Source: Jatrophihabitans cynanchi
GTDB lineage: Bacteria; Actinomycetota; Actinomycetes; Mycobacteriales; Jatrophihabitantaceae
Length of the DNA stretch: 64,000 nt
NCBI RefSeq assembly: GCF_027247405.1
Contig: NZ_CP097463.1
Coordinates: 2,852,001-2,916,000, forward strand
Direction: 5' to 3'
Under the pieces are notes generated by a model. The model saw only the letters and a program-made list of their open reading frames with translations, had not been told where the DNA came from and made no database searches. Numbering within the stretch: position 1 is the first letter of the stretch; the number at the start of each line of letters is the position of its first letter. The translations under genes were made by a program, and so were the position numbers. This document shows, piece after piece, positions 37,265 through 59,967 of the stretch.

Positions 37265-38932
37265 TCACACCGGCAGCACGTGCTCGGCGAACCGGTCCCG
37301 CAGCGTCTTCTTGGAGAACTTGCCGACACTTGTCTTGGGGACCTCGTCGATGAAGACAACATCGTCCGGTAGCTGCCAGGAGTTGAGCCGTTCGCGCAGA
37401 AAGTCCAGCACCTCGTCCCGCTCCAGCCGCTCGCCGTCGCGGACCACCACACAGGCCAGCGGGCGCTCGCCCCACTTCGGGTGCGGCAGCGCGATGACCG
37501 CCGCCTCGGCCACCTTGGGATGCGCCATGATCTGGTTCTCCAGCTCGACCGAGCTGATCCACTCCCCGCCGGACTTGACCAGATCCTTGGTCCGGTCGAC
37601 CAGCCGCAGGTAGCCGAGCGGGGAGATCGCGGCCACGTCGCCGGTGCGCAGCCAGCCGTCCGGCGAGAACTGCTCGCCCGGCTCGTCGGTGCGGTAGTAC
37701 TGGCTCGCCAGCCACGGGCCGCGGCACTCCAGTTCGCCGGTGGCCGTGTCGTCCCAGGGCAGCTCCTCGCGGGTCGCGGAGTCGACGATGCGCAGGTCGA
37801 CACCGGGCGGGGCGATGCCGGCCGTCGCGCGGATGTCGGCCTGCTCGTCCTCGGACGCGTCGGCGTACTCGGCCCGCAGGTAGCACACCGAGCCGAGCGG
37901 CGACATCTCGGTCATCCCCCACGCCTGGGTGATCGGCAGGCCCACCTTCGCCCGCCAGGCCTCGGACAGGGAACGCGGCACTGCCGAACCACCGCAGATG
38001 ATCGTGCGCAGGCTGGACAGGTCGTGCTGGTCCAACAGCGGCACCATGCCCATCCAGATCGTCGGCACGCCCGCCGCGACGGTCACCCGCTCGGACTCCA
38101 TCAGCGCCAGCAGCCCGGCCGGGCTCAGGTCCGGACCCGGCATCACGAGCGAGGACCCGCCGAGGAACGCCGCGTACGGCAGCCCCCACGCGTTGGCGTG
38201 GAACATCGGCACGACCGGCAGGATCGTGTCCGCGTCGGTCATCCCGAAGACGCCGCTGGTCAGCGAGGCGTTCGAGTGCAGCCAGGTGGAGCGGTGCGAG
38301 TACAGCACTCCCTTCGGGTGTCCGGTCGTCCCGCTGGTGTAGCAGATCGCGGCCGCCTGCCGCTCGTCCGTGACCCGGCCACCGAGGTCGGCCTCCTCGA
38401 CGCCGGCGAGCAGGTCCTCGTACCGCACGACCCGCGGATCGTCCGGCAGTTCGGCGGGCGCCCCGTCGTCCATCACGATCACGTGCTTGAGCGTGCGCAG
38501 TTCGGGCAGGTACTTCGCGAACAGCGGCAGCAGCGACCGGTCGACGAACACCGCCTCGTCCTCGGCGTGCTCGAACGTGTAGATCAACTGCTCGGGGAAG
38601 TAGCGGATGTTGCCGGTGTGGATCACGCGGCCGGTGCCCGGGATCGCGAAGTAGAGGCCGAGGTGCCGCGCGGTGTTCCACGCGAACGTGGCGACCCGCC
38701 CGCCCGGGCTGATGCCGAGGCTGTCGATCGCGGCGGCCTGCCGGCGGGTCTCGCCGCCGATCTCGGCGAAGGTCCGGCGCTCCAGCCCGGTGGCCGTCCT
38801 GGTGGTGACGGTCCGGGTGCCGAAGAACCGCTCGCCCCGTTCGAGGATCCAGGTCGTGGTGAGCGGAATGTCCTGCATCAGTCCCAACATGCAGTGATCG
38901 TGGTCCAACCCCTCGGCCGCGGCAAGGGTCAT
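37265..38932 (-). CDS. Medium/long-chain acyl-CoA synthetase (AlkK-like)
   Basis: It activates fatty acids to acyl-CoA through an acyl-AMP. The AMP-binding P-loop is YTSGTTGHPKG, the adenine motif is QAWGMTEMSPLG, and the C-terminal hinge and lysine motif read GYLRLVDRTKDLVKSGGEWIS and SVGKFSKKTLRD. The N-terminal MLGLMQD is typical of AlkK-type enzymes. The ATG at 38932 overlaps the upstream stop by 4 nt (ATGA); ATG 38890, at MLGLMQD, is an alternative and agrees better with homologues. Confidence 0.9.
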   Translation of the reverse strand: MTLAAAEGLDHDHCMLGLMQDIPLTTTWILERGERFFGTRTVTTRTATGLERRTFAEIGGETRRQAAAIDSLGISPGGRVATFAWNTARHLGLYFAIPGTGRVIHTGNIRYFPEQLIYTFEHAEDEAVFVDRSLLPLFAKYLPELRTLKHVIVMDDGAPAELPDDPRVVRYEDLLAGVEEADLGGRVTDERQAAAICYTSGTTGHPKGVLYSHRSTWLHSNASLTSGVFGMTDADTILPVVPMFHANAWGLPYAAFLGGSSLVMPGPDLSPAGLLALMESERVTVAAGVPTIWMGMVPLLDQHDLSSLRTIICGGSAVPRSLSEAWRAKVGLPITQAWGMTEMSPLGSVCYLRAEYADASEDEQADIRATAGIAPPGVDLRIVDSATREELPWDDTATGELECRGPWLASQYYRTDEPGEQFSPDGWLRTGDVAAISPLGYLRLVDRTKDLVKSGGEWISSVELENQIMAHPKVAEAAVIALPHPKWGERPLACVVVRDGERLERDEVLDFLRERLNSWQLPDDVVFIDEVPKTSVGKFSKKTLRDRFAEHVLPV

Positions 38933-40230
38933 CGATAGGTGCGCGTGATGAGGAACGTCTTGGATCGCACGCTGCTCGCGCCGAAGAAGCCGGCCGCGCT
39001 GTGCAGGTAGCGGCGGATCGCGAAGTCGTCGCTCGCGTCGGCCCGGGCTGCGCCGTACCGGTAGGACGTGTCGATGCCGTGCGCGTCGCCGATGCTGTCG
39101 CGCGCGCCGTCGAACCGCACCGTCGTCACGTTGGCGCGGTCCGGGTTGCCATGACCGTCCAGGTGCGGGATCAGGTCGTGCCGGTTCTCCAGGGCGAGCA
39201 CCGCGACGCCCTTCGGCACCTCGCCGGCGAAGCCGCCGACCGGCGAGCCGGCGGTCACCACGTGGGTGATCTTGAACGCGCCGGTGCGCACCGCGTCGCG
39301 CGCCGCTGCCAGCGCGACCATGCCGCCGAGGCTGTGGCCGACCAGCATGACGTCATCGCTCGGGCGGACGCCGGCCTGCCTCATCGCCGCGAGCACCCCC
39401 GCCTCGTAGGTGGTCGGCAGGCCGTCGATCGCGCGCAGGTTGGTGGCCACGCCGACGACGTCGGCTGTCTGGTGCGCCGGCGTCCAGTCCTTGGTGCCCG
39501 GGATGTCGACGAGCACGTGCCGCACCCCGTTGGCGCCGGTGAGGATCTTGACGTCGATCTCGCCGGCGGCACCGGCGTTGCGCAACTGCAGCCCGGCCAT
39601 CAGGTCGGCGAGCCCGCGGGGCGGCCGTGCGGCGCCGGGGCGGGAGTCCTCGCCGGTCGTCGTCACGACGGGCGAGCCGTCGGCGCAGTACGCGCGCAGC
39701 ATCAGCAACGTCTCGGACAGCGACGTCCCGGGCAGCAGGCCGGGCAGGACGGGTGCGAGGTCGACGGTGAGGTCGGCCAGCGCCGGGTCGTGCAGCGCGG
39801 CCTGCTGCAGGGCGCTGCCCGGGCCGCCGGCGACGAACGCGGTGCTTCCGGCGAACACGGCGCCGGGCAGCGCGACGGTGGCGTCCCAGGCGGTGCCGGC
39901 CAGTTCGGTCAGGCCGTGCCAGATGCCGCTGTCCGCGCCCTGGTACTCGGCGATCGCGTGGCCGAGCAGGTGGCAGAAGGTGCGCAGGTCGTGCGCGAGC
40001 GCGTCCAGTGCGGCGACGCCCGCCTCGAGAGCCGCCGCCGCCTCCAGCGCGCCGAGCGGGTCGACGATCGGGGCCTGCGACCGCAGCGCCGTCAATGCGG
40101 GCAAGCATTCGCCGCGGATGTCGTCGATCCGGCTGGCCTGGCGGTTCAGCAACACGGCGGTGCGGCGGACGTCCTCGAACTGCGCGGCGATCCCGTCGGC
40201 GCCACCGCTGACCGTGACCCCGCCGCTCAC
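38929..40230 (-). CDS. Alpha/beta hydrolase with WXG-like helical N-terminus
   Basis: The N-terminal ~140 residues are helical and Ala-rich, like ESX/WXG100-related leaders. The C-terminal half is an alpha/beta-hydrolase with nucleophile elbow LVGHSLGGMVAL and a late His in IDTSYRYG or nearby. There is no signal peptide. GTG overlaps the stop of a small WXG-like gene by 4 nt (GTGA), and the stop overlaps the acyl-CoA ligase start (ATGA), so the three are one operon. A type VII-secreted lipase or esterase is one reading; the substrate is unknown. 433 residues. Confidence 0.7.
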   Translation of the reverse strand: MSGGVTVSGGADGIAAQFEDVRRTAVLLNRQASRIDDIRGECLPALTALRSQAPIVDPLGALEAAAALEAGVAALDALAHDLRTFCHLLGHAIAEYQGADSGIWHGLTELAGTAWDATVALPGAVFAGSTAFVAGGPGSALQQAALHDPALADLTVDLAPVLPGLLPGTSLSETLLMLRAYCADGSPVVTTTGEDSRPGAARPPRGLADLMAGLQLRNAGAAGEIDVKILTGANGVRHVLVDIPGTKDWTPAHQTADVVGVATNLRAIDGLPTTYEAGVLAAMRQAGVRPSDDVMLVGHSLGGMVALAAARDAVRTGAFKITHVVTAGSPVGGFAGEVPKGVAVLALENRHDLIPHLDGHGNPDRANVTTVRFDGARDSIGDAHGIDTSYRYGAARADASDDFAIRRYLHSAAGFFGASSVRSKTFLITRTYR

Positions 40231-40499
40231 GGCCGGACACCCGGCGGCAGGCCGTCGGCCACCTGGATCGCGTGGCGGCGGATCAGGTCGGCGGCCGCGT
40301 CCAACTGCGCCGCCCTGGTTCGCAGCGCCAGCGCGGTCTCGTGCAACCGGTCGCGGAAGCGGGTCGCCGCGACCGACTGCCACGACGTGGTGCCCCCGGC
40401 CAGCGCGATGCAGATCGCAGTCTCGCGCAACGCATCGGCCTGGGCGAGCACGCGGGCCGCCGCGGCGTTCAGCTCGGCCGGGTCCGGCAACCAGGACAT
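40227..40499 (-). CDS. Small WXG100-like protein
   Basis: A 90-residue helical protein. TSWQSVAATRFRDRLHETALALR lies at mid-length and resembles the WXG turn followed by a helix, but the Gly is replaced (W-Q-S). Such proteins pair with type VII secretion substrates. ATG 40511 would add four residues. It overlaps the hydrolase start by 4 nt. No ESX core genes are in the window. Confidence 0.55.
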   Translation of the reverse strand: MSWLPDPAELNAAAARVLAQADALRETAICIALAGGTTSWQSVAATRFRDRLHETALALRTRAAQLDAAADLIRRHAIQVADGLPPGVRP

Positions 40500-40679
40500 G
40501 TCGGACAGCATCCAGCCCGGTGTGCCCGGCTGCCAGCGCGTGGGCGAGTATGTGGACGAGCCGCCGGTTGTCCACAGCGCGCCGACCCGCCGATGTGGCG
40601 GCGGCCGTGATTGAATGGCGACCGGTGAATCACACCGGTGCAATTTGCACGGTGCAGCGAGTCGAGGGAGCACGCCGAC

Positions 40680-53231: not shown

Positions 53232-53537
53232 TCAGTCCTCCGGCGCCACCTCCGCCAGCCGCTGCAGCGTCAGTACGGCCTTGGCGCGCAATTGCGCGGC
53301 GTCGATCCCGTTCACCTGGGCGCGCAGCCCGTCGTCCGCGACGTAGTCGTCGACATCGAAGAAGAAGTCTTCGAGTAGGCGGAACACTGGTTCTGGCCAG
53401 TTCGTGGCGTCTCGCTTGTACTGCGCGAGGAAGTTGTGTTCGAGCGTCTCTGCACTTGTGTCTCCGCTGACGAAGCGCTGCAGAAGTGCCCGGTACGGGG
53501 TGAGGGAGTCGCATCCGTAGTCGACGAATTCAGCCAC
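53232..53537 (-). CDS. Immunity protein, colicin D immunity-like
   Basis: A 101-residue acidic protein lying directly downstream of the toxin gene and overlapping it by 8 bp, so the pair is translationally coupled. LLQRFVSGDTSAETLEHNFLAQY, LLEDFFFDVDDYVADD and AAQLRAKAVLTLQRL fit the colicin D/ImmD-type helical immunity fold, which blocks the tRNase active site with acidic residues. The family assignment rests on pattern and context, not on a search. Confidence 0.65.
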   Translation of the reverse strand: MAEFVDYGCDSLTPYRALLQRFVSGDTSAETLEHNFLAQYKRDATNWPEPVFRLLEDFFFDVDDYVADDGLRAQVNGIDAAQLRAKAVLTLQRLAEVAPED

Positions 53538-54909
53538 CGCCCAGCACCCCTTTCGTGGTGACGTAGAGCAACTGCTTGGGCGACATCATCCAACCGCTGA
53601 TGAAGCTACCGTCCAGCTTCTGGATCACCACAAGCATCGATTGTGCGTCGTAGTTGAGGATGACAGTCTGGCCGTGATACCTGCCGATAATGCGTGCTGT
53701 CGCAGGCCGGGCTACGAAGTCAGCAAGGCGATGTTCGAAGGCATCGAAGCCTTCGCGACCTCGCGGCAGGCGGATCCCGAAGTCGCTTGCGTGTTTGAAG
53801 TGGCTTTCGATCTGAGCGCGCGGCAGGCGGAGCGGCACGTCCGGCACTTCGGCTGCTGCTTCCAGGCGAGCGGCGGCCGCTTGCTCGGTCGTGGTGGCGG
53901 CGGCGACCGAGCGGGTCTGCGCCATGACCGGTCGAGCGGTCAGCAACGGGCGAAGGGACCTGCTGATCTCGGCGCAGCGCGGCGCGAGCCGGCCGATCGC
54001 CGCAGCACCGTCATGCGCCAGCCCGGCGAGGCGCGCAAGGATGGTGCTGATGCGCGCCGCGGTCGCCGCGATCCGGGCCACTTCGGCGCCCTGGGTCGGT
54101 GCCTGCGCGGCGCCGAACGAGACGAGGCTCAGCAGCGCACCGCCGCTCTCGATGGCCGCCGTCCAGGCGAGCAAGGTGGTGAGCTCGTGCTCGACCTGGG
54201 CGTGGGCGTGATCCAGGAACTCGGCGAACTCGACACAGTGCATGCCGAGGTCCTTGCACAGCTCGGCCAGTTGCTCGAGCGTGTCGCGTAGGCCGTTGCA
54301 GACGTCGATCGCGGTGTCCGCCTCGGGACTTGCCTGCTGGGCGATCACGTAGACCGCGTCGGCGACGAGATGGCTGGCGTCGTACAGTCCGCACGCACTC
54401 TCGTGCCAGGCGGTGGCGGCGCGATGCAGCCGGTCTTGGTGACCGTTCGGCCAGGCATACCCGACCAGGTGCGAGACCAGCCCCCACCCGGCCGGCCCAC
54501 CGCCCGAGCCCCCGGTCGCTGACGGCAGCGCGCCCAGGAACACCGATCTGCTCCCGTACCCGAGGCCGGCCGGCACCGGTCCCGTCGCGCCTGCCGACGA
54601 ATCCGCCTCGGCCGTTGCGTAGTTGATGCCGGTCCGTTCGAGCAGGTCAGCCAGCTGCAAGGCGGCGTTCAGCGCGTCCTGGACGCCACCGAGCGCTGCC
54701 CTCGCAGCCTCGTCGTAGGACGCCGCCCACCCCCGCGCGGCGGCGTCCGACCCGGCCATCGACGCCAGCCCGGACAGGCGGGCCGTCAGCGCCTGCGCCG
54801 CATCCTGGACCGTGCCGGAGACCGAGTCCCCGACGGCCGATCCGGCGGCGAGGTAGCCGGCCGGATCGACCGCGAGCGCGCCACCCATCTCTGCCTCCGA
54901 ATCGGACAT
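53530..54909 (-). CDS. Polymorphic toxin: WXG-like leader and colicin D-like tRNase C-terminus
   Basis: The first ~95 residues are a helical, Ala-rich ESX/WXG-type leader, without a Sec signal peptide. A long helical middle follows (about 150-340). The last ~90 residues fit the colicin D nuclease pattern: HFKHASDFGI (candidate catalytic His), AFEHRLADFVARPATARIIGRYHGQTVILNY, then GSFISGWMMSPKQLL. Colicin D cleaves tRNA-Arg in the anticodon loop. The immunity gene overlaps the 3' end. Type VII export and tRNA cleavage are inferred; no secretion genes are in the window. 459 residues. Confidence 0.7.
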   Translation of the reverse strand: MSDSEAEMGGALAVDPAGYLAAGSAVGDSVSGTVQDAAQALTARLSGLASMAGSDAAARGWAASYDEAARAALGGVQDALNAALQLADLLERTGINYATAEADSSAGATGPVPAGLGYGSRSVFLGALPSATGGSGGGPAGWGLVSHLVGYAWPNGHQDRLHRAATAWHESACGLYDASHLVADAVYVIAQQASPEADTAIDVCNGLRDTLEQLAELCKDLGMHCVEFAEFLDHAHAQVEHELTTLLAWTAAIESGGALLSLVSFGAAQAPTQGAEVARIAATAARISTILARLAGLAHDGAAAIGRLAPRCAEISRSLRPLLTARPVMAQTRSVAAATTTEQAAAARLEAAAEVPDVPLRLPRAQIESHFKHASDFGIRLPRGREGFDAFEHRLADFVARPATARIIGRYHGQTVILNYDAQSMLVVIQKLDGSFISGWMMSPKQLLYVTTKGVLGGG

Positions 54910-55004
54910 ATCGGCCGGGCAGAGCCTATGCGAATCACGGGCCCGCTGGCGGGGCTGTGGACAAGGGTGATTCTCGACCGCGCCGGACGGAAGCGCCGCG
55001 GCCG

Positions 55005-55574
55005 CTAGGTCTTGAGCGGGTAGCTCGGTCGGGGGTCGTGTGCGGTGTTGCGGATGGGGGTTTGGTTGCCTGTCCAGGCGGGTGGGATCCAGTGTGGGAT
55101 GCCTCCCCTGCCGGCTACGCCGTCATTGGCGGGGGGACTCCCATTGAGCATGCGGCACACCCAGCCGAGGCGTTCGAACGTGCGGTGGTGGTAGGTGCAG
55201 AGTAGGCAGCCGTTGTCGATGTGGGTGGGTCCGCCGTCGGCCCAGGGCACGATGTGGTGGACCTGGCAGTGTTGTGGGGGTGCGTCGCAGCCGGGGAATG
55301 AGCAGCCTTTGTCTCGGATGATCAGGGCGTGGCGTTGCTGGCGGGTGAAGATGCGGCAGGGGGTGCCGAGGGCTTCGATGCGCCGGTGTTGGTTGATCCA
55401 GACGGGTTGTACGAGGGTGTCCCCGCCGTCGGCCCACTGCCGGGCGGTGCTGGCGTGCACGATGGTGCCGTGTCCGGTGGTGGCGGTGCCGGTGCCGGTG
55501 AGGAACGCCTCGCGGGTCATGCTGAGTAGCAGGGTGCTGCTGATGCCGCCGCAGTCGGGCAGCAGTTCGGCGCG
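55005..55574 (-). pseudogene. DUF222-HNH endonuclease gene, 3' part
   Basis: This is the C-terminal half of a DUF222-HNH protein. The HNH nuclease site is intact: CSFPGCDAPP, QVHHIVPWADGG, DNGCLLCTYHHRTF. It continues the frame of 58722-59516 exactly when the insertion and one 6-bp copy of GGCGCG are removed, giving 452 codons. DUF222-HNH genes are common, multicopy and often linked to mobile DNA in actinobacteria. No start codon of its own precedes the domain except ATG 55520. Confidence 0.85.
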
Positions 55575-58648: not shown

Positions 58649-58721
58649 GAGACGATCTCCTGTCGTGCCCTCACCGGTGGCCCGGGGCTCCGGGGTGTCT
58701 CAACACAGCCTGACAGGGAGG

Positions 58722-59516
58722 GGCGCGGGCGGTGAGTTTGAGCGCCTCCAGGAGCGCGTCGTGGCGCCGTTGCGGCGCAGTCCGGGGGTCCTTCCCGCCA
58801 TCGGCGGCAGGCTTGGGTTTGGCGAGCGTGTCGAACACTGTGCGCAGCCACTCGGTGAGTTCGGCGGTGCAGTTGCCGCTCAACCGGCCGGACCCGTCGG
58901 GGCGGATGGCGAGGGTGACTTCGCGTTGGCGTTGCCGCTGGGTTTCTTGGGTGAGTAGCCCGTCCGGGTCCAGTAGCGCGGTGACGTGCCGGGTCAGGGT
59001 GCGTAGTTGGTCCAGGTCCAGCTCGCCGGCCTGCTTCGTGAGGGTGTGTTCCAGGTCCCGGTCGACCTCGGCCCGTACCGCGTCGGGGAGTTGTTCGATG
59101 GTGTGCACGATCAGCCGGGCTGCGGGTTCGGACACCTGACCGGCGGCTTGCGCCGCGGCCAGGACCGGGTAGACGGGTTCGAGGGGTTCCCCGAGCAGGG
59201 TGCGGCGCGGTCCGAGTGCTTCGGCCGCGACGACGCGGGCTTTGGCCGCACCGATGCCGGCCCGCAGCACGCTGCGCGCCAGTGTCGTCATCGAACGCTC
59301 GCCGAGGGTGTGCGGGACGTTGCGGGTCTGCAACTGGGCGATGAGGGCGTGATCGATCGGGGCGAGGGTGCGGCGCCGGTGTTCCAGTTCGCGCCACAGG
59401 GCCAGGACTTCGCTGTCGCTGTGAGCGTCCAGCACCAGGGTGTTCAGCCGCTGCAACACGGTGTCGAGCTCGGCCAGCACGGTGCCGGCTTCCGGGTTAA
59501 CCTGACTGCCGAACAT
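58722..59516 (-). pseudogene. DUF222-HNH endonuclease gene, 5' part
   Basis: The DUF222 domain begins near LAELDTVLQRLN and includes LAARLIVHTIEQLPDAV-like and RQREVTLAIRPDGSGRLSG segments. It is cut after 265 codons at the codons for RA, where the IS3-family element entered. The ATG at 59516 is chosen because the 5'-ward open frame to 59939 is only repetitive sequence. Joined with 55005-55568 it gives a 452-residue protein. Confidence 0.85.
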
Positions 59517-59655
59517 GCTAGCGATAATAGCAGGTATGACCGACAGATTCCACCCGAAACAAGGCGATACTCGAGATTTCTCGACCAATTCCGGGCGATC
59601 GGAACACGCGAGGCGGGAGGGGACCACAACGGGTGCAAACCCAGCAGCCCAGCGC

Positions 59656-59880
59656 GAAGGCGACCGGCAGCGACAGCCGAAACGGCCGCAACCGCCGTCG
59701 GTGCGCCCTTCACCACGTTCGGAGGCGACTCGGCAGCGCGAGCCGACCGGAGGCGAACCGTCCCCATCGATGCGCCTTTCACCACGCGCGAACGCGACCC
59801 GGCAGTGCGAGCCAGGCACGAGCCGAACCACCACCGTCGCTGCGTTCTTTATCAGTGCCAGAGAGCGACCCGACAGCCGA
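59656..59880. repeat. Degenerate tandem array of about 68-bp units
   Basis: Four imperfect units start near 59656, 59722, 59790 and 59861. Each has a GCGACyCGGCAG-like start and, about 50 bp on, a GCGCCyTTCACCACG-like segment. The array fills most of the gene-free stretch 59517-59967; reading frames on both strands across it are compositional and not convincing genes. Confidence 0.65.
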
Positions 59881-59967
59881 GCGGGCATGAAATCTCCCAT
59901 TGCGGCGGCTTTCACCGATAGCGCAGCGTGACGTGGCATCGCCGGCCGAGCAGGAGTTCGCGATCAG

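What the first reader, a model, noticed from the sequence alone, without database searches (positions are those of the whole stretch)
53232..54909. T7SS-style toxin with a colicin D-like tRNase tail and coupled immunity gene
Seen: a 459-residue protein with a WXG-like helical leader, no Sec signal, and a ~90-residue C-terminus with FKHASDFG and SGWMMSPKQL in the colicin D order; a 101-residue acidic gene overlaps its end by 8 bp. Known: colicin D cleaves tRNA-Arg, and ImmD-type partners block it. Inferred: contact or ESX-mediated competition using a tRNA anticodon nuclease in an actinobacterium. It stands next to a mobile-element hot spot.
Basis: partly seen in the sequence, partly recalled or inferred. 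Interest (0 to 1): 0.75.

Follow-up and report, generated by a model that had tools for sequence, protein, structure and literature searches.

The report
ESX-exported colicin-D-type tRNase toxin
A soil-type actinobacterium carries a two-gene toxin-and-antidote set that joins a type VII secretion (ESX) export domain to a tRNA-cutting domain of the colicin D kind, and its promoter carries the same DNA element as those of DNA-uptake and ESX genes, suggesting that killing neighbours and taking up DNA may be linked.

Summary
The window gene (53530-54888, minus; the start is probably ATG 54888, so 452 aa) has an EspB/CpnT-like ESX export domain with a YxxxE motif and a C-terminal colicin D tRNase domain (Pfam above cut-off; structure Z 11.7, 2.2 A). 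The overlapping 101-aa gene is a Colicin_immun (ImmD-type) protein. The genome has a full ESX machine (EccB/C/D, mycosin). Relatives carry the same N-terminus with other tails (EndoU, Ntox24, barnase-like), usually behind two WXG100 genes, as in esxF-esxE-cpnT-ift and the mycobacterial prophage 'PEST3' cassettes. Here that pair is not adjacent: a 55%-identical orphan pair lies at 0.991 Mb, and a second toxin copy 28 kb away also lacks a pair. Colicin D's essential K607/K608 are S/H here; H611, D614 and S677 are kept. A competence-linked toxin regulon is a real but unproven possibility.

The parts
53530..54888 (-). Toxin gene (452 aa with start ATG 54888; 459 aa if ATG 54909): ESX-type export domain, linker, colicin D-type tRNase domain
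   Evidence: Pfam Colicin_D and WXG100_2 above cut-offs; start site from SD and homologue alignment
53860..54888 (-). N-terminal EspB/CpnT-like helical export domain and linker
   Evidence: WXG100_2 E 1.7e-8; AlphaFold model matches EspB, Z 17.4 over 238 residues; homologues with other tails
54607..54621 (-). YxxxE export motif (Y97-E101; Y90-E94 in 452-aa numbering) after the first helical hairpin
   Evidence: YxxxD/E kept in 7 of 9 family members, Y to H in two; coordinates
53560..53811 (-). Colicin D-type tRNase domain; H611 equivalent = H373 (codon 53791-53793), D614 = D376, S677 = S438, W679 = W440; K607/K608 equivalents are S369/H370
53232..53537 (-). Immunity gene, 101 aa, Colicin_immun (ImmD type), overlapping the toxin end by 8 bp
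   Evidence: Pfam PF09204 E 6.6e-7 above cut-off; same family beside other Colicin_D toxins; four-helix model, pLDDT 77
54955..54964 (-). TTGTCCACAG promoter box (DnaA-box-like)
54923..54928 (-). -10-like TAGGCT, 36 bases downstream of the box start
54894..54898 (-). Shine-Dalgarno GGAGG for ATG 54888

Best explanation
It is a chromosomal polymorphic toxin and immunity pair of the CpnT/PEST3 type. The N-terminal EspB-like bundle with its YxxxE motif hands the protein to the cell's ESX (type VII) secretion system, probably helped in trans by the orphan EsxF/EsxE-like WXG100 pair at 0.991 Mb. In a neighbouring cell the C-terminal colicin D-type domain acts as a metal-independent tRNase (probably an anticodon-loop nuclease) and stops translation. 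The acidic ImmD-type protein, translated together with the toxin, blocks the basic RNA-binding face of the domain in the producer and its kin. Shown: domain identities and folds, gene order and overlap, export motif, ESX core genes, modular tail exchange among relatives, shared promoter element. Inferred: export itself, tRNA cleavage, neutralisation, target cell.
For: Pfam and PDB matches. The AlphaFold model matches EspB (Z 17.4, 238 residues) and colicin D (Z 11.7, rmsd 2.2 A, 96 residues). H611, D614, S677 and W679 are kept. Immunity family and charge complementarity. ESX EccC, EccB, EccD and mycosin. The same N-terminus occurs with EndoU, Ntox24, weak barnase-like and unknown tails and different downstream genes. 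Two WXG100 genes upstream in relatives, with orphan homologues elsewhere in this genome. GC3 falls from 0.87 in the N-terminal part to 0.72 in the toxin domain, as expected if the tail was grafted on. CpnT precedent: YxxxE and EsxEF are required for export (PMC8092274, PMC7810871).
Against: The WXG100 pair is not adjacent, so export could fail or depend on an unlinked pair. K607 and K608, called essential in colicin D (PMC3482391), are S and H. The immunity model found no significant PDB match, nor did the family profile. Nothing was measured, and members of the Colicin D/E5 clan cut at different tRNA sites (PMC9990079).
Confidence: 0.78

Rival explanations
1. The pair is a stranded cassette: after losing its WXG100 pair it is no longer exported and persists as an addiction or abortive-infection style toxin-antitoxin pair acting inside the cell.
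For: No WXG100 genes beside either toxin copy in this genome; HNH and IS genes directly upstream.
Against: The export domain with invariant residues and YxxxE is intact; a closely matching WXG100 pair exists elsewhere and bears the same promoter element.
Confidence: 0.2
2. The toxin is aimed at eukaryotic cells (protists, fungi), as CpnT is at macrophages, rather than at bacteria.
For: CpnT has the same layout and kills host cells (PMC7810871).
Against: Colicin D-type domains are known as antibacterial weapons (PMC9990079); tails vary as in interbacterial sets. No host is known for this organism.
Confidence: 0.12
3. The nuclease domain is degenerate because K607 and K608 are lost.
For: Both lysines are listed as essential in colicin D.
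Against: H611, D614, S677 and W679 are intact; a homologue from another family (L019) has the same SHFKH variant; the toxin and immunity ORFs are both intact.
Confidence: 0.08
4. On control only: the TTRTCCACAG element marks a DnaA-governed replication or DNA-damage response rather than competence, and the toxins respond to that stress. This is compatible with the best explanation of the toxin itself.
For: TTGTCCACA is the high-affinity DnaA box of M. tuberculosis and S. coelicolor (PMC4285127); recA and dnaB carry the element.
Against: comEA-comEC, Tad-pilus and ESX genes, which have no known replication role, carry it at the same phasing.
Confidence: 0.4

Closest known systems
Colicin D and its immunity protein ImmD (PF11429 / PF09204)
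   Same: tRNase fold (Z 11.7, 2.2 A over 96 residues), H611, D614, S677, W679, basic toxin domain with acidic immunity protein
   Different: Export by an ESX-type domain instead of receptor-binding and translocation domains; K607/K608 are S/H; actinobacterium
CpnT-IFT operon (esxF-esxE-cpnT-ift) of M. tuberculosis
   Same: EspB-like N-terminal domain, YxxxE after the helical hairpin, toxin at the C-terminus, overlapping immunity gene downstream
   Different: tRNase in place of NAD glycohydrolase; WXG100 pair unlinked; sequence not compared directly here
PEST3 cassettes of M. abscessus prophages (PMC10654092)
   Same: About 300-aa N-terminal domain like CpnT, variable toxin tail, immunity gene, two WXG100 genes in relatives
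   Different: No phage genes seen at the locus; colicin D not mentioned in that paper's main text; WXG100 pair missing at this locus
CdiA-CT toxins of the colicin D family (EC3006, Kp342)
   Same: PF11429 tRNase tail on a contact-dependent delivery protein
   Different: Delivered by CdiB/CdiA of Gram-negative bacteria; those cut the tRNA acceptor stem (PMC9990079)

Membership tests
Colicin D tRNase domain (PF11429) | Profile match above the curated cut-off | tested here: met
   48.1 bits against 25, residues 367-449
Colicin D tRNase domain (PF11429) | Colicin D fold | tested here: met
   Foldseek 1tfo_A TMt 0.78, rmsd 2.3 A; VIA Z 11.7, 2.2 A over 96 residues
Colicin D tRNase domain (PF11429) | Catalytic H611 with D614 and S677 | tested here: met
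   H373, D376, S438
Colicin D tRNase domain (PF11429) | K607 and K608 | tested here: not met
   S369 and H370; L019 shows the same variant
Colicin D tRNase domain (PF11429) | Cleavage of tRNA-Arg between bases 38 and 39 | not testable with these tools
   Needs an assay; relatives cut other sites
ImmD-type immunity (PF09204) | Profile match above the curated cut-off | tested here: met
   30.3 bits against 22
ImmD-type immunity (PF09204) | Structural match to solved ImmD | tested here: inconclusive
   Four-helix model from two sequences, no significant PDB match
CpnT/PEST3-type ESX toxin | EspB-like N-terminal domain with YxxxD/E | tested here: met
   EspB Z 17.4; Y97xxxE101
CpnT/PEST3-type ESX toxin | Two WXG100 genes directly upstream | tested here: not met
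   None in the window; pair at 0.991 Mb, up to 55% identical to relatives' partners
CpnT/PEST3-type ESX toxin | Immunity gene directly downstream | tested here: met
   8-bp overlap
CpnT/PEST3-type ESX toxin | ESX machinery in the cell | tested here: met
   EccC 864 bits; EccD, EccB, subtilase
CpnT/PEST3-type ESX toxin | ESX-dependent secretion | not testable with these tools
   Needs experiment
PEST (phage-encoded) cassette | Carried by a prophage | not tested
   No systematic prophage search was run; neighbours seen are transposases, groEL and housekeeping genes
Polymorphic toxin system | Shared N-terminus with exchangeable toxin tails and matching downstream genes | tested here: met
   Colicin_D, EndoU, Ntox24, weak barnase-like and unknown tails on one N-terminus

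The most novel reading that the evidence does not exclude
In this actinobacterial family (named relatives are Jatrophihabitans-like) ESX-exported toxins, their WXG100 partners and an ESX core gene belong to one regulon with DNA-uptake genes (comEA-comEC, yraN-comM-dprA, recA, Tad/Flp pilus). The switch is a DnaA-box-like TTRTCCACAG element at one of two positions, one helical turn apart, upstream of the -10 box. Cells would kill neighbours and take up the released DNA in one programme, the type VII counterpart of T6SS- or bacteriocin-coupled competence.
Probability: 0.38. Interest if true: 0.85.

Novelty: new variant of a known kind. Interest (0 to 1): 0.62.

Why it matters
The 2012 survey of polymorphic toxins lists colicin D domains neither in actinobacteria nor with type VII export (PMC3482391), so this joins two well-studied halves in a new way and gives a defined tRNase cargo for testing ESX-mediated competition outside mycobacteria and Firmicutes. 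The split layout (one orphan WXG100 pair, two pairless toxins) allows a direct test of whether EsxEF-like pairs work in trans. The shared promoter element, if confirmed, would tie type VII toxins to DNA uptake in high-GC Gram-positives, where control of competence is hardly known.

Tried and rejected
The genome-contig scan with the single toxin sequence found no relatives; the N-terminal alignment found 14. NCBIfam gave no meaningful hits for either protein; its weak bacilliredoxin hit for the immunity protein is far below cut-off. PDB sequence and structure searches with the immunity protein gave only unrelated helical proteins or nothing. Plasmid records hold only the tail, in colicin D-like genes of enterobacteria, with 18% of the query covered. 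The idea that the WXG100 partners are hidden upstream in the window was rejected by tblastn with relatives' partners. RHS/HINT proteins with Colicin_D tails in the same order (L002, L017) are a different delivery type. The barnase and barstar reading of the second copy is only weak: Ribonuclease 15.1 bits, below cut-off, and no Pfam match for the downstream gene. Limits: the spacing statistic uses the first TAnnnT after each box, and sites in related genomes are not independent.

Full report
OBSERVATION. The two ORFs are present as described and overlap by 8 bp. Pfam finds Colicin_D at residues 367-449 (E 1.5e-12) and WXG100_2 at 143-270 (E 1.7e-8) in the long protein, and Colicin_immun (E 6.6e-7) in the short one, all above curated cut-offs. 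phmmer against the PDB finds colicin D chains at about 2e-6 and nothing else of note. The start is better placed at ATG 54888: GGAGG precedes it and relatives' homology begins there.

STRUCTURE. An AlphaFold model of the 452-aa protein, built on 10 sequences, has mean pLDDT 80. Its N-terminal part matches EspB, an ESX-1 substrate (Z 17.4, 3.5 A, 238 residues), and residues 354-449 match colicin D (Z 11.7, 2.2 A, 96 residues, 28% identity). EspB is also the template on which CpnT was recognised as an ESX substrate (PMC8092274). The immunity model is a four-helix bundle (pLDDT 77, two sequences); it gave no significant PDB match.

ACTIVE SITE. Aligned to 1v74, H611, K610, D614, S677 and W679 are kept as H373, K372, D376, S438 and W440. 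K607 and K608 are S369 and H370. One other homologue, L019, has the same SHFKH run, so this looks like a variant rather than decay. Toxin domain pI 10.1 and immunity pI 4.3 fit the tRNA-mimic mode known for ImmD (own knowledge of colicin D).

EXPORT. The family N-terminus has an invariant W...YD turn followed by YxxxD/E in 7 of 9 members, as in CpnT, where the motif after the helical hairpin is required for export (PMC8092274). The genome holds EccC (864 bits), EccD, EccB and a subtilase at 0.287-0.302 Mb and a second, more distant EccC-like gene at 3.40 Mb.

MODULARITY. The same N-terminus occurs in 7 of 24 genomes of the family, including a second copy 28 kb away in this genome. Tails differ: Colicin_D, EndoU, Ntox24, a weak barnase-like one and unknowns, with different downstream genes. 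Named relatives are Jatrophihabitans and Pseudonocardiales MAGs, Nocardia, Gordonia, Williamsia, Rhodococcoides and a Mycobacterium, and most of them carry two WXG100-like genes directly upstream. Colicin_D hits occur in 11 of 399 genomes of the order; some are RHS/HINT proteins instead. GC3 drops from 0.87 to 0.72 between the N-terminal part and the toxin domain, as expected of a grafted tail.

SPLIT CASSETTE. No WXG100 gene lies beside either toxin here. A stand-alone pair between ndk and mreB at 0.991 Mb is 50-55% identical to the best-matching cassette partners of relatives. Whether it serves both toxins in trans is open.

PROMOTER. The toxin, its second copy and the orphan pair share TTGTCCACAG upstream. 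Genome-wide TTRTCCACAG occurs 23 times against 6 for the reversed control. Of these, 6 have TAnnnT at the phased offsets 36-39 or 46-49 (shuffle mean 0.7, none of 5000 reached 6): the window toxin, copy 2, the orphan WXG100 pair, the ESX-locus WXG100, recA and comEA. dnaB follows at offset 52, and the yraN-comM-dprA operon has the box with an imperfect -10; a tadA-like gene has a one-mismatch box at offset 47. In 24 family genomes the pattern has about 80 places against 6 in the control. Among 76 distinct sites 63 lie at offsets 37-39 or 47-49 and one at 41-46; the two clusters are one helical turn apart. Downstream genes of 74 sites: WXG100 22, WXG100_2 toxins 3, DUF222/HNH 7, dnaB 5, TadA 3, TadE 2, recA 2, comEA 2, peptidase E 2. 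TTGTCCACA is the high-affinity DnaA box of M. tuberculosis and S. coelicolor (PMC4285127). Flp/Tad pili and ComEC are needed for natural transformation of Micrococcus luteus, which also has ComEA and DprA (PMC4322843). A search for papers joining type VII secretion with competence in actinobacteria found none on the subject. The regulon reading is inference from sequence: neither the regulator nor the inducing condition is known.

COMPARISON. The 2012 survey lists Tox-Colicin D with T2SS, T5SS, cloacin, TcdB/TcaC, PVC and MuF export, not T7SS, and not in actinobacteria (PMC3482391). The PEST paper describes CpnT-like four-gene cassettes in mycobacterial prophages but its main text does not mention colicin (PMC10654092). 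So this is a new variant of a known kind. It works like colicin D by domain and like CpnT by export. Membership in the CpnT/PEST3 layout fails at this locus on one feature, the adjacent WXG100 pair.

VERDICT. The finding is real, ordinary in its parts and new in combination; the promoter link to DNA uptake is the part most worth testing.

Noticed in passing
L035:1501-3365 (G000:C1 about 2.934 Mb, 28 kb from the finding): Second toxin with the same export domain (49% identical) but a weak barnase-like tail and a different downstream gene; same promoter box; no WXG100 partner beside it.
   Followed up: partly
L038:2491-3065 (G000:C1 about 0.991 Mb): Orphan EsxF/EsxE-like WXG100 pair between ndk and mreB with the same promoter box and no toxin next to it.
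   Followed up: yes
window 54923-54964 and 23 genome sites (L042-L064): TTRTCCACAG element phased with TAnnnT upstream of competence, recA, dnaB, ESX and toxin genes; spacing bimodal by one helical turn across the family.
   Followed up: partly
L065, L077, L084, L086, L105, L133, L141: DUF222/HNH (13E12-type) genes carry the same promoter element in relatives; such genes also lie next to the finding (window 55005-55520 and 58671-59939).
   Followed up: no
window 38929-40511 (-): A short WXG-like ORF (no Pfam match) followed by a lipase/alpha-beta hydrolase protein; could be another ESX substrate pair. A TTGTCCACAG box lies at 40568 (+) without a phased -10.
   Followed up: partly
L037:12300-18100 (G000:C1 296-302 kb): WXG100 pair in two near-identical copies 5.1 kb apart inside the ESX locus.
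   Followed up: no
L014:413-1785: A Colicin_D WXG-type toxin in another family of the order appears split by a frame change, while its WXG100 and immunity genes look intact.
   Followed up: no
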